This document shows, piece after piece, positions 10,310 through 61,386 of a stretch of DNA of 64,000 nucleotides (the first letter of the stretch is position 1; each line of letters begins with the position of its first letter). The stretch comes from Candidatus Aramenus sulfurataquae (lineage in GTDB: Archaea > Thermoproteota > Thermoprotei_A > Sulfolobales > Sulfolobaceae). The stretch spans positions 62,001 through 126,000 of the forward strand of contig ASRH01000004.1 of the NCBI GenBank assembly GCA_000565255.1. The letters run 5' to 3'. Position numbers and translations under genes: made by a program. Below the pieces are notes generated by a model that searched no databases, was not told the origin of the DNA, and saw only the letters and a program-made list of their open reading frames with translations.

Positions 10310-10397
10310 GGGCCCGTAGCTCAGCTAGGTAGAGCGCTCGGCTCATATGCTGGGCTGAGAGACCGAGTGGTCGAGGGTTCAAATCCCTCCGGGCCCA
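10310..10397 (+). tRNA. tRNA-Met(CAU), elongator type, with intron
   Basis: Acceptor GGGCCCG/CGGGCCC, discriminator A. Anticodon stem CTCGG/CCGAG; the loop reads CTCATA, then a 14-nt intron (10348-10361), then A38. The canonical 37/38 insertion site fits splicing by the archaeal endonuclease. The G1-C72 pair and intron suggest the elongator form. A TATA-like CTTATAAAGG is at 10276-10285. Confidence 0.93.
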
Positions 10398-10446
10398 CCT
10401 ATACGGTAATTTTAAAATCCATCCTCTTTAGTGGATTTAGACCCAT

Positions 10447-16751: not shown

Positions 16752-16971
16752 TCATTATTCTATCAATGTCAAAGGCTTATAAGATTAATTAGCTATTCAT
16801 GTTCTTCAAAAAGGCCTTAGGGAACTAGATCGATATCCCTTCAATTTCGTCAATAAGAGACGTTGGGCTTATAAAGAAGAACTAGAAATTCTGAATTTTG
16901 ATATGGTAAATAGCTTATTACAACGCGAAACGAGCACTTGAAGCTCGCATTTCTGCCAACAACATAATTGG

Positions 16972-17070
<99 letters not shown>

Positions 17071-56567: not shown

Positions 56568-56801
56568 TTGACTGTAGAGGCGCTTGTCCAACAGCTTACT
56601 ACTCAAGTCACTGAGATAGCGTGGAGCGTGTTTATACTGGCGTGGGCCGTTGGGTGGGCTGTGAGGGGATCTCCTATACCTATATTTAAGGTAAAGAGGA
56701 CAGGGCAGGACATAATTGAGGACGCCATACTTGCGGCCTTCTGGTTAGCTGTTGGTACTACCGTGTTCAGCTTGATCTCCTATATAGCGGGCCAAGTTTA
56801 A
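56568..56801 (+). CDS. cedA1: CedA1, small membrane subunit of the Ced DNA importer
   Basis: 77 residues with two membrane helices (about 17-34 and 53-74) linked by PIPIFKVKRTGQDIIEDAI. Size, topology and position directly before cedA match CedA1 of Sulfolobus. With CedA, CedA2 and the ATPase CedB it imports DNA between cells after UV-induced pili-mediated contact. TTG start 19 nt after cmk. Confidence 0.75.
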   Translation: MTVEALVQQLTTQVTEIAWSVFILAWAVGWAVRGSPIPIFKVKRTGQDIIEDAILAAFWLAVGTTVFSLISYIAGQV

Positions 56802-56813
56802 AGGTGATCGCCG

Positions 56814-57599
56814 TTGTATAGCTCGTTCGAGTTTCTGGGGATAGCTTTCGACCTAGCTATCCTCACGTACTTTATAGGAACTCTAATAATGGGCCTTCCT
56901 ATACCCGTTTACGGCTTGAAGAAATGGGGTCCTAAGCTTATTTCTGATGGAATATACTCAGCTGTTCTAGTAAACCTCTTTGAGCTCATCCTTTACGTCT
57001 CACAGGAGATCTCGTCAGCTATTGGCGCTAGCTGGGCGAACTTTTACCAGTGGATATATGAAGTTATAGCTCAAGAGCTCAACATCTTTTTCTTAGTTAA
57101 GGTACTCTACGCTGTGGCCGCTGCGTCGGAAGACCCTGCACTGAATGTACTTATGTCTCCTCTGCTTTTCATTTTTTCCTTTCTAACTGGGCTTATAACA
57201 ACAATGGAGACTATCCTCATAATATCTTACATAGTGTTGCAGGACAACGGGTTATTCATAGCTATGGGGATATTGCTGATGGCTTTGCCTTTTAGAATCG
57301 GGAGGAGTATTGGTGGTGCCTTGATCGGATTCGCGGTAGTCTTTTACATAGGCCTTCCTTACCTCCCAAACTTCTTGACTGGACTAGGCATGAATTTGCT
57401 CAACATGTCAAACGTTAACACCAATAACACCCAGGACTTTGTTACCTTCCTTATAACTTACGCTATTCCTTACTTAATAGAGAGTACAGTAGTTCTTCCC
57501 ACAGCGTATATTACTATACTCTCTGGACTCTCATTAGGCCTTGGTTCGGCAATAAGCGGGTATTCCTCTAGGCTACCTATACCCATTGATATCTTCTAG
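56814..57599 (+). CDS. cedA: CedA, DNA-import channel protein
   Basis: 261 residues, with about six or seven membrane helices: FDLAILTYFIGTLIMGLPIPVYGLKK near the start (echoing the CedA1 PIPIF..K motif), AVLVNLFELILYV, LLFIFSFLTGLITTMETILIISYIVL, and a C-terminal IPYLIESTVVLPTAYITILSGLSLGLGS. No signal peptide. TTG start. The ATPase cedB is not in this window. Confidence 0.78.
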   Translation: MYSSFEFLGIAFDLAILTYFIGTLIMGLPIPVYGLKKWGPKLISDGIYSAVLVNLFELILYVSQEISSAIGASWANFYQWIYEVIAQELNIFFLVKVLYAVAAASEDPALNVLMSPLLFIFSFLTGLITTMETILIISYIVLQDNGLFIAMGILLMALPFRIGRSIGGALIGFAVVFYIGLPYLPNFLTGLGMNLLNMSNVNTNNTQDFVTFLITYAIPYLIESTVVLPTAYITILSGLSLGLGSAISGYSSRLPIPIDIF

Positions 57600-57613
57600 A
57601 GGGTGCAAAAGTA

Positions 57614-57772
57614 TTGAAGAGCAAGACCTTGGCTGTAGCGCTTATAGCTGTAAACATGGTGATAATGTCGTTATCCACAAAAAACGTCGTTTACTTAGTC
57701 TTTAACGCCATCTTAATTGTAGTAATTTACGTTGTTGTAACCCTTATTTCGAAGAGGTTTGCTGAGGGTTAG
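57614..57772 (+). CDS. cedA2: CedA2, small membrane subunit of the Ced DNA importer
   Basis: 52 residues encoded from a TTG 14 nt after cedA, too short for common gene-length cutoffs. Two hydrophobic helices, ALIAVNMVIMSLS and VVYLVFNAILIVVIYVVVTLIS, are separated by a short polar turn (TKN) and end in KRFAEG. Number, topology and place after cedA fit CedA2. GAGGGTGC lies just upstream of the start. Confidence 0.72.
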   Translation: MKSKTLAVALIAVNMVIMSLSTKNVVYLVFNAILIVVIYVVVTLISKRFAEG

Positions 57773-57878: not shown

Positions 57879-58298
57879 ATGAAAAAGTTTGAGTTTTTCG
57901 ATCACACTGCGGACGTGGGGATTAGAGCTTACGGAAGGACGCTTGAAGAGGCGTTTGAGAACGCAGCGTTAGCCGTCTTTGAGGTAATGACTGACACCTC
58001 TAAGGTCGAGGGAAGGGAATGCAGAGATGTAGAAATAGAAGGTTATGATCTCGAAAATCTATTGTATAGGTGGATCGAATCCCTACTTGTGTTCTACGAC
58101 TCCGAGCTTTTGCTCTTTAGTAAGTTCTCCGTTAAAATAGATCAGGATAACTTTAAGCTCAAGGGGAGGGCTTGCGGGGAGAGGTTTGACGAGAGCAGAC
58201 ACGAGAGAAGAACTTTGGTGAAGGCTATGACTTACAGTGAAATGAGGATAGAACAAAATGATGGCATTTACGAGCTAACCTTCGTCGTTGATATTTAA
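57879..58298 (+). CDS. Archease
   Basis: 139 residues: FFDHTADVGIRAYGRTLEEAFENAALAVFEVMTD (metal-binding Asp), LLYRWIESLLVFYDSE, ERRTLVKAMTYSEMRI, FVVDI end. Activates the tRNA ligase RtcB and is thus tied to the splicing of the intron-bearing tRNAs seen here. TATA-like GTAAAGTTAAAAGG lies about 20-35 nt upstream. Convergent overlap of 24 nt with the next gene. Confidence 0.95.
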   Translation: MKKFEFFDHTADVGIRAYGRTLEEAFENAALAVFEVMTDTSKVEGRECRDVEIEGYDLENLLYRWIESLLVFYDSELLLFSKFSVKIDQDNFKLKGRACGERFDESRHERRTLVKAMTYSEMRIEQNDGIYELTFVVDI

Positions 58299-58775
58299 CC
58301 TTGCCTTACAATCTTCACAGTAGTAGTTTGGAAGTAAGTCCAACTCATGGACGTCTTTAAACCCTCTCATAATACATTGGTTTTTGCAGCCCTCTAAACC
58401 CGCTATTTTTCCAATAGAAAAGAGCGACATCTTCTTAAGCCTCTCTATAGTTTTATCCATAGACACGTCTTCAAGGTTTCTGATGAAAAGTAGAGCTAGT
58501 TTGTCCTTGGTTGCGAAAAGGCTAGGCGTTACGATGGGCACATCAGCTATTCCCAATACCACGTCGTACGGATAACCGTAGAACCTCTTGGCAAAGCTGT
58601 CTAGAAGGCTAGACGAGTTATATCCGTTCTTGTCCCACTCATAGCTAGTTACAGAGACGTGGAATATTTCGGGATACGTCTTCACGCTGAAGCCATTCTC
58701 TGTCAGGAATGAGGAGATGGCATTGAGTAAGCTTTTGTCTACTTTGTTGACTTGAACCAATAGGACTTTCTTCAT
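58275..58775 (-). CDS. Archaemetzincin homologue without catalytic residues
   Basis: 166 residues. The overall archaemetzincin plan is kept: YDVVLGIADVPIVTPSLFATKDKLALLF (family: LGVTDVDLY...), and near the end GLEGCKNQCIM ... YYCEDC, the structural zinc site. But where active members have HExGHxxGLxHC, this one has FSIGKIAGLEGC: both flanking His, the catalytic Glu and the third His are replaced by F, S, K and G. It should therefore not be a protease. The ORF is intact, so it may have another role, perhaps binding. Confidence 0.72.
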   Translation of the reverse strand: MKKVLLVQVNKVDKSLLNAISSFLTENGFSVKTYPEIFHVSVTSYEWDKNGYNSSSLLDSFAKRFYGYPYDVVLGIADVPIVTPSLFATKDKLALLFIRNLEDVSMDKTIERLKKMSLFSIGKIAGLEGCKNQCIMRGFKDVHELDLLPNYYCEDCKARLNINDEG

Positions 58776-58900
58776 GTGGGGGGCCCTGGAGACCCTATCT
58801 CATTGAGCCCTTTTAAGGGCATCTCCTAGAGAGTCGCCAAGCCCCCGTCTCTAATACTTTGACAAAAATTTTAAGTTTGAGACCATACATAAATATGATT

Positions 58901-60418: not shown

Positions 60419-60958
60419 ATGGAACAGTCGGTAAAAGGTAAAAGAGTCCCCTTTACTATAAGAAACGTAAGACTGGACGATGTAGACTCAATAATTAAGA
60501 TAAACAGACTGACTCTGCCAGAGAATTATCCCTATTACTTTTTCGTGGAGCACGTAAAGGAGTACGACAAAGCCTTCTATGTGGCTGTTGTAGACGGAGA
60601 GATCGTCGGCTACATTATGCCCAGGATAGAGTATGGGTTTAGTAACTTCAAGGCGATACCGACGTTAGTTAAGAAGGGACACGTAGTTTCCATAGCCGTA
60701 TTGGAGAAGTTTAGGAACCAAGGAATAGGGAGCGCCTTATTGGATGCTTCAATAAAGAGTATGAAGGAGGACTACGGCGCAGAGGAAGTGTACCTTGAGG
60801 TTAGGGTGACCAATTATCCAGCAATATCGCTTTACGAGAAGTTCGGTTTCACAAAGGTCAAGGTTCTAAAACATTACTATGCAGATGGAGAGGATGCCTA
60901 TCTCATGGCAACTCTCTTGAAAGAGAACTCCAAGGTATCCGGCAATAACTCCACGTAA
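60419..60958 (+). CDS. ard1: Protein N-terminal acetyltransferase Ard1/RimI type (GNAT)
   Basis: 179 residues: RNVRLDDVDSIIKINRLTLPENYPYYFF (substrate side), GYIMPRIEYG, and the acetyl-CoA grip SIAVLEKFRNQGIGSALL, LEVRVTNYPAISLYEKFGF. Like Sulfolobus Ard1, which acetylates protein N-termini. The 3' end overlaps the convergent phosphoesterase-like gene by 61 nt. Confidence 0.94.
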   Translation: MEQSVKGKRVPFTIRNVRLDDVDSIIKINRLTLPENYPYYFFVEHVKEYDKAFYVAVVDGEIVGYIMPRIEYGFSNFKAIPTLVKKGHVVSIAVLEKFRNQGIGSALLDASIKSMKEDYGAEEVYLEVRVTNYPAISLYEKFGFTKVKVLKHYYADGEDAYLMATLLKENSKVSGNNST

Positions 60959-61386
60959 AACCCCTTTAGTACTGACCCCACAGAGATCACGGTAATCTCA
61001 TCCTTCTTCACAACGGATGGATAATCCGAGTGACCATGAAGGATAAGCACTTTTTCCCCCTTAGGTATTGGCATGTCTTTTCCCACCGTAAAGCCTCCAA
61101 TAGTTCCCGTACCGTAGCCCTTTGGAGGAAAGTGAGTCATAAAGACCTTTAGCCCTAGGTTAAACAACCGTTCGAAAGTGCTGGAGTCTATTAGCCTACC
61201 TGTGCTTTTTAAGTACTTCATTACAAATACGCTTTCCATCTCGCCCAAGATGCCGTAGAAGTTTTCTAAATACTGAGGACACTCCACGTCTCCTAGTCCT
61301 ATAATTGCCTCATATTCTTGAGAATTAAAGTAGTCTACTGCATCCACGAGGCAGGGGAAGCCTGACACTAGAGCGAGTTTTCTCAT
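60898..61386 (-). CDS. Metallophosphoesterase-like protein, degenerate active site
   Basis: 162 residues. The calcineurin-like layout is visible: LALVSGFP, IIGLGDVE (keeps GD), GILGEMES (for GNHD/E), VFMTHFPP, ILHGHSDYP (for GHxH) and VISVGSVLKGFYVEL. The first metal-binding DxH is lost and other ligands are altered, so activity is uncertain. It ends the minus-strand operon, overlapping the CitG-like gene by 62 nt. Confidence 0.65.
   Translation of the reverse strand: MRKLALVSGFPCLVDAVDYFNSQEYEAIIGLGDVECPQYLENFYGILGEMESVFVMKYLKSTGRLIDSSTFERLFNLGLKVFMTHFPPKGYGTGTIGGFTVGKDMPIPKGEKVLILHGHSDYPSVVKKDEITVISVGSVLKGFYVELLPDTLEFSFKRVAMR

What the first reader, a model, noticed from the sequence alone, without database searches (positions are those of the whole stretch)
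58275..58775. Archaemetzincin homologue that has lost every catalytic residue
The motif HExGHxxGLxHC is replaced by FSIGKIAGLEGC, while the structural Cys site and the N-terminal family core are intact, and the ORF shows no stops. Loss of all four active residues with an intact frame suggests selection for a non-proteolytic function (pseudoprotease).
Basis: partly seen in the sequence, partly recalled or inferred. Interest (0 to 1): 0.55.

Follow-up and report, generated by a model that had tools for sequence, protein, structure and literature searches.

The report
Archaeal pseudo-archaemetzincin, repeatedly inactivated
A protease-shaped protein of an archaeon has lost its cutting machinery but is still kept and protected by selection, and relatives lost theirs several times independently, which suggests the protein does a useful job that is not cutting.

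Summary
The ORF at 58275-58775 (-) is real and its 166-aa product is an archaemetzincin: AlphaFold2 pLDDT 95; Z 20.8, rmsd 2.0 over 154 residues against AfAmzA. All three catalytic-zinc histidines and the general base are gone (F, S, K, G at 119, 120, 123, 129); the four structural cysteines and the Met-turn Met remain. It is the only copy found in the genome. It does not look like strain decay: the one other species of the genus held has the same loss (FAIGKIASLEGC), dN/dS is 0.10-0.11 (bootstrap 0.04-0.20), and the cysteine codons differ only synonymously or not at all. 30 of 31 genomes of the family keep a homologue: 14 intact, 2 with Asp as third ligand (one also without the Glu), 14 inactive. 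Species trees need at least three, probably four, separate inactivations; Metallosphaera and genus g6 keep only the N-terminal domain. Best reading: a selected pseudoprotease that acts by binding, as CarG of Myxococcus does; the partner is unknown. New variant of a known kind. In passing: a conserved H/ACA-like RNA overlaps the gene's ATG.

The parts
58275..58775 (-). pseudo-archaemetzincin ORF, 166 aa, only copy found in the genome
58386..58421 (-). former catalytic motif, FSIGKIAGLEGC (residues 119-130) in place of HExGHxxGLxHC
58308..58388 (-). retained Cys4 structural zinc site C130, C134, C153, C156 with Met-turn M136
   Evidence: cysteine codons differ synonymously (C130, C134) or not at all (C153, C156) from the sister species
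58461..58775 (-). N-terminal domain (residues 1-105) with W47, the part that Metallosphaera and genus g6 keep alone
57879..58298 (+). archease, convergent neighbour overlapping the ORF's 3' end by 24 nt; archease found near archaemetzincin in 54 of 63 loci examined
58774..58846 (-). conserved H/ACA-like RNA whose ACA overlaps the ATG of the ORF (ACATG)
   Evidence: no Rfam match

Best explanation
This is a catalytically dead archaemetzincin maintained by selection as a binding protein. Shown: the predicted metzincin fold and four structural cysteines are kept, the catalytic zinc ligands and the base are gone, no second copy was found, and the coding sequence is under purifying selection between the two species held. 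Inferred: without catalytic zinc it cannot hydrolyse peptides; the Cys4 zinc holds the C-terminal half together; the protein works by binding a protein or peptide partner without cutting it, as the zinc-bound, protease-dead CarG does with CarD. Because related lineages lost catalysis separately and some kept only the N-terminal alpha/beta domain, the binding surface is most likely on the N-terminal domain, around the backing helix and the conserved (D/E/N)W turn.
For: Fold: pLDDT 95.2, pTM 0.90; Z 20.8, rmsd 2.0, 154 residues against 4axq. Purifying selection: dN 0.036, dS 0.334, omega 0.109 between the two species; 0.101 with bootstrap 0.042-0.203, N-domain 0.085, C-terminal part 0.112; intact archaemetzincins of sister genera give 0.07-0.20 except in two very close pairs. 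Same loss in G001. Retention: 30 of 31 family genomes, 28 of 28 near-complete ones. 14 of 30 inactive, all with open frames. Separate losses: g9, g2+g3 and g1+g10 sit beside or apart from intact genera. The N-domain-only form of Metallosphaera javensis is predicted to fold as the archaemetzincin N-domain: pLDDT 81.6, Z 11.9. W47 kept in 30 of 30 family homologues. Precedent: CarG, no protease activity, in a tight complex with CarD (passages of PMC8156234).
Against: No partner, expression or phenotype is known. Selection was measured on one species pair. Omega is higher than in 48 of 63 genes compared, so the gene is among the less constrained. Metallosphaera copies diverge fast (31-55% identity; omega 0.14-0.33 where dS can be computed, at dS of 2 to 4, so unreliable), which also fits slow decay. 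Genus g8 lost one of the four cysteines and the Met. W47 may be purely structural, and it is V in one degenerate copy outside the family (G045). In genus g6 the copy is only 103 aa, not beside archease in the stretch read, and matched at E 7e-5.
Confidence: 0.62

Rival explanations
1. Slow vestigial decay: proteolysis became unnecessary in this family, and the remnant is being lost step by step (catalytic residues first, then cysteines, then the C-terminal half), with the frame kept only for a while.
For: A graded series exists: third His to Asp (g9), catalytic residues gone with Cys4 kept (g1, g2, g3), one Cys gone (g8), C-terminal half gone (g10, g6). Metallosphaera copies evolve fast. Omega above the median of the genes compared.
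Against: Omega 0.10 with an upper bootstrap bound of 0.20; 8 synonymous to 3 non-synonymous differences in 18 codons around the former active site; 14 of 14 inactive family homologues have open frames although synonymous sites are saturated between many of them; retained in 28 of 28 near-complete family genomes.
Confidence: 0.2
2. A new, non-peptidase ligand or metal site: the emptied cleft has become a binding site for a small molecule or another metal.
For: The scaffold is predicted intact. In Metallosphaera several residues are fixed in 6 of 6 species, including an E-C pair and a Cys near the C-terminus.
Against: The window protein has F, S, K, G at the old site, not a new set of usual metal ligands. 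The Metallosphaera E-C pair has no counterpart in the window protein.
Confidence: 0.08
3. Still an active peptidase by a migrated active site.
For: AMZ-tk single zinc-ligand mutants (His to Asp) kept about 20% activity (passage of PMC4681839), so archaemetzincins tolerate one changed ligand.
Against: Here all three His and the Glu are lost at once; the Glu to Gln mutant of AMZ-tk had minimal activity. No HExxH elsewhere in the protein (sequence).
Confidence: 0.04
4. Selection acts on overlapping elements rather than on the protein: the H/ACA-like RNA at its 5' end and archease at its 3' end hold the locus together.
For: The RNA overlaps the start codon here; archease overlaps 24 nt.
Against: The overlaps cover only the start codon and the last 24 nt; omega is low in both halves.
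Confidence: 0.06

Closest known systems
Archaemetzincin / AmzA, peptidase family M54 (AfAmzA 3zvs and 4axq, MkAmzA 2x7m, MlAmzA 3lmc; AMZ-tk)
   Same: Fold, Cys4 zinc motif with the spacing of AfAmzA, Met-turn, single-domain form
   Different: All four catalytic residues replaced; GLNFVFG and the R/Q of DWxRxQY lost; below the NCBIfam family cut-off (51.2 against 145 bits)
CarG of Myxococcus xanthus; NCBIfam NF033824 (non-proteolytic archaemetzincin-like protein)
   Same: Archaemetzincin-like protein with a Cys4 motif and no protease activity; the model for how a dead archaemetzincin can work (partner binding)
   Different: CarG keeps HQxxH...H and is reported to hold two zinc atoms, losing the Glu (passage); bacterial; partner CarD. 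The window protein scores 21.5 bits against the model's cut-off of 250
PIG-S subunit of GPI transamidase (AmzA-like portion)
   Same: Folds similarly to AmzA without a metzincin active site; the authors of PMC9098846 suggest substrate recruitment (passages)
   Different: Eukaryotic membrane complex, no Cys4 site; no sequence relationship shown here; it matched the Metallosphaera model only weakly by Foldseek (E 0.024)
Human AMZ1
   Same: A family member whose catalytic motif is altered (third His replaced; passage of PMC3427221)
   Different: Only one ligand changed; aminopeptidase activity has been reported and is questioned in that paper

Membership tests
Archaemetzincin fold family (M54) | metzincin fold of AmzA | tested here: met
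   predicted model: Z 20.8, rmsd 2.0, 154 residues, 23% identity to 4axq; Foldseek E 3.9e-12 to 3zvs
Archaemetzincin fold family (M54) | Cys4 structural zinc motif and Met-turn | tested here: met
   C130, C134, M136, C153, C156; zinc binding itself not testable
Archaemetzincin fold family (M54) | sequence profile | tested here: inconclusive
   Pfam above its cut-off (33.1 against 24.4); NCBIfam E 1.4e-13 but far below its cut-off
Active M54 peptidase | HExxHxxGxxH catalytic motif | tested here: not met
   F, S, K, G at the four positions
CarG-type equivalog NF033824 | score over the curated cut-off | tested here: not met
   21.5 against 250 bits
CarG-type (works like) | stable complex with a protein partner | not testable with these tools
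   no interaction data
Pseudoprotease (selected, inactive) | purifying selection after loss of catalytic residues | tested here: met
   omega 0.101, bootstrap 0.042-0.203; one species pair only
Pseudoprotease (selected, inactive) | no proteolytic activity | not testable with these tools
   inferred from residues only

The most novel reading that the evidence does not exclude
In this archaeal family the retained job of archaemetzincin is non-proteolytic and resides in its N-terminal domain: proteolysis is the dispensable part, lost at least three times within the family and probably also in two other families of the order, leaving the N-domain, nearly always with its (D/E/N)W turn. Archaemetzincins in general would then be binding proteins first and proteases second.
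Probability: 0.28. Interest if true: 0.7.

Novelty: new variant of a known kind. Interest (0 to 1): 0.5.

Why it matters
The abstract of PMC3427221 says very little is known of the biological importance of archaemetzincins; two archaeal ones (AfAmzA, MkAmzA) showed no activity in the assays it reports or cites, while AMZ-tk degraded casein (PMC4681839). A natural series from intact through Asp-liganded and ligand-free to N-domain-only forms, in one archaeal family with some genetically tractable members (recalled, not from a call), makes the question 'what does archaemetzincin do besides cutting' directly testable: pull-downs with inactive and N-domain-only forms cannot lose their partner by cleaving it.

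Tried and rejected
Tried without gain: the protein-seeded scan of genome contigs found no relative; an archease-anchored scan gave named loci instead. Rfam had no match for the upstream RNA. Full-text searches: archaemetzincin (24 papers, all listed), archaemetzincin with Sulfolobus (3), 'peptidase family M54' (2), pseudoprotease terms (10 of 138 listed), pseudoenzyme with archaea and protease (8 of 20 listed). In the titles and abstract starts listed, none concerned an inactive archaeal archaemetzincin; bodies were read only as passages of four papers (PMC3427221, PMC4681839, PMC8156234, PMC9098846; of PMC4681839 also the abstract). Subscription journals are not held, and MEROPS was not consulted.

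Rejected: a second copy in the genome (one match only); strain-specific decay; a different fold. I also tested whether faster change of the catalytic part marks the inactive genus, and it does not: several intact pairs show the same. I first took the abutment of the upstream RNA to the gene as a mark of inactive lineages; looking again, several intact g5 genes have in-frame TTG or GTG codons within a few bases of the RNA, so that mark is weak and depends on which start is used.

The two-marker tree and the 23-marker tree disagree on genera g6 and g8, so I claim at least three losses and call four only probable. In one search four genomes (G027, G029, G040, G047) had no archease found and G006 none was sought; they are in the tree by EF-2, and G002 by archease alone. 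The 23-marker IQ-TREE run hit its time limit before bootstrap values; support comes from FastTree and SH-aLRT, where the position of g6 is unresolved.

Rows left out: G019 (71% complete) has no homologue found and is not in the trees; G024 and G028 are in the residue table but not in the trees. Three of the 14 rows of the RNA alignment (L010, L008, L173) were not carried into; L010 does not hold the RNA. Weak matches in G116 and G071 and G149 were not examined. The eight handles were my guess at the eight unlisted genomes. Genus labels g1-g11 are the tool's; Metallosphaera is named through L065 and L066, whose contig lengths equal those of G018 and G022. No call named the organism of the window.

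Full report
1. Observation. The ORF at 58275-58775 on the minus strand encodes 166 aa without stops. Its only significant family matches are archaemetzincin: Pfam M54 33.1 bits over the cut-off of 24.4; NCBIfam archmetzin E 1.4e-13, residues 4-160 to positions 2-170 of 170, but 51.2 bits against a cut-off of 145; and the myxobacterial 'non-proteolytic archaemetzincin-like protein' model at 21.5 against 250. By phmmer it finds 3zvs and 4axq (E 7e-7), 3lmc (0.0013) and, weakly, 2x7m (0.051). Residues 119-130 are FSIGKIAGLEGC. All four catalytic positions differ (F, S, K, G for H, E, H, H), while the four structural cysteines and the Met-turn methionine stay. One copy was found in the genome. The N-domain is intact as a fold but not in its family signatures: GLNFVFG is lost and DWxRxQY reads EWDKNGY.

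2. Structure. With an alignment of 22 sequences AlphaFold2 gives pLDDT 95.2 and pTM 0.90. The best solved matches are AfAmzA (Z 20.8, rmsd 2.0, 154 aligned) and the other archaemetzincins (Z 18.6-20.5); the next rows, snake-venom and ADAM metzincins among them, lie at 13.4 and below. The model was built with homologues in the alignment, so it shows compatibility with the fold, not zinc binding.

3. Selection. The other species of the genus held, G001, has FAIGKIASLEGC and 93% identity. Across 63 genes of the window compared with G001, median omega is 0.06; this gene has dN 0.036, dS 0.334, omega 0.109, higher than 48 of the 63. With a codon bootstrap it is 0.101 (95% 0.042-0.203); N-domain 0.085 (0.017-0.210), C-terminal part 0.112 (0.025-0.350). 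In the 18 codons around the former active site there are 8 synonymous and 3 non-synonymous differences; two cysteine codons differ synonymously and two not at all. Intact archaemetzincins of sister genera give 0.07-0.20, apart from two very close pairs with 0.31 and 0.74 on tiny dS. Decay in this genus is therefore unlikely, though one species pair is a thin basis and the gene is among the less constrained of those compared.

4. The family. In 31 genomes of the family a profile search finds a homologue in 30, and in 28 of 28 near-complete genomes. Residues at the key positions: intact HExxH...H in 14 (genera g4, g5, g7, g11); two genomes of g9 with Asp as third ligand, one of them also with Gly for the catalytic Glu; and 14 inactive: g1 (2, this genus), g2 and g3 (3), g8 (2; three of four catalytic positions lost, one Cys and the Met lost), g10 = Metallosphaera (6) and g6 (1), the last two without the catalytic and Cys4 part. 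W47 is kept in all 30. The Metallosphaera form is 132-135 aa in 6 of 6 species, counted from starts chosen by alignment, with open frames and 31-55% identity. The model of the M. javensis protein (pLDDT 81.6) matches archaemetzincin with Z 11.9, rmsd 2.7, 121 aligned.

5. How often. On an EF-2 plus archease tree, g9 is sister to intact g7 (bootstrap 96), g2+g3 lie beside intact g5 (68), and g1, g10, g6, g8 form one clade (80). On a 23-protein tree g1+g10 are sisters (SH-aLRT 100), g2+g3 join g5 (99.8), g9 joins g7 (100), and g8 and g6 are basal with g6 unresolved. Without regain, the first tree needs three losses and the second four or more. Outside the family, degenerate or N-domain-only copies were read in G045 (the same protein as in named locus L081, an Acidilobaceae archaeon) and in G074 and G048 of another family; these matches are weaker (E 1.2e-7, 7.5e-7, 0.004), and G045 has V in place of W47. 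In the order, 119 of 147 genomes match the archmetzin model, 102 over its cut-off.

6. Context. Archease overlaps the gene by 24 nt here and was found near archaemetzincin in 54 of 63 loci examined, several of them from the same genomes and not always convergent. It is 57-95% identical and adjacent in 25 of the family genomes or more, so most inactive copies are the old gene in its old place; g6 is the exception. Beyond archease lie CedA2 (below cut-off), CedA and CedA1 of the Ced DNA-import system. Directly upstream is a conserved 73-nt hairpin with an ACA end.

7. Mechanism. Shown: predicted fold, loss of catalytic residues, selection in one pair, retention, recurrence. Inferred: no hydrolysis; Cys4 zinc as structural staple (supported by published cysteine mutants of MkAmzA and CarG, passages of PMC3427221); action by binding a partner, with CarG as precedent (passages of PMC8156234); binding surface on the N-domain. 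Published point mutants suggest why g9 may be half-way: AMZ-tk with single His to Asp changes kept about 20% activity, while the Glu to Gln mutant had minimal activity (passages of PMC4681839).

8. Novelty. Inactive archaemetzincins are known (CarG; the NCBIfam model; AMZ1 with one ligand changed). What I did not find in the listings of the searches named is an archaeal family where the catalytic site was lost repeatedly, down to N-domain-only forms. I file it as a new variant of a known kind.

Noticed in passing
58774-58846 (-): A conserved 73-nt hairpin with a k-turn-like GA/UGA and an ACA 3' end, perhaps an archaeal H/ACA guide RNA (motifs recalled), lies directly upstream; 9 of 21 predicted pairs show a two-sided change in 11 sequences, fold z-score -2.86, no Rfam match. 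A regular expression finds it at 26 of 30 family loci (not at G006, G009, G011, G017). Its target was not worked out.
   Followed up: partly
58773-58776 (-) and loci: In the 13 inactive genomes with this RNA its end overlaps or lies within 3 nt of the beginning of the conserved coding region; in the 13 intact ones the gap is 12-129 nt with the starts I chose, or the RNA is on the other strand (g4). Several intact g5 genes have in-frame TTG or GTG codons closer to the RNA and few lineages stand behind the pattern, so it may be an artefact.
   Followed up: partly
L059, L060, L173: In genera g2 and g3 no usual start codon follows the RNA closely; the frame is open through the whole RNA back to an ATG at its 5' end, so the protein may begin inside the RNA.
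   Followed up: no
56568-57772 (+): CedA1, CedA and a divergent CedA2 (23.9 bits against a cut-off of 80) of the Ced DNA-import system stand beside archease.
   Followed up: no
L063-L066 and others of g10: Metallosphaera N-domain-only forms share fixed residues in 6 of 6 species, including an EC pair and a cysteine near the C-terminus; two N-domain-only proteins of another family (L217, L218) also have cysteines in a roughly similar place.
   Followed up: no
L010, L011: Genus g9 has HExxHxxGxxD (L011) or HGxxHxxGxxD (L010), the third ligand of Asp-zincins inside an archaemetzincin.
   Followed up: partly
60898-61386 (-): A calcineurin-like phosphoesterase relative (Pfam 19.9 bits, below its cut-off of 27) has the highest omega of the 63 genes compared, 0.338.
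   Followed up: no
10310-10399 and 16969-17069: ARAGORN reports two tRNAs with four-base anticodons, perhaps intron-containing tRNAs read wrongly.
   Followed up: no
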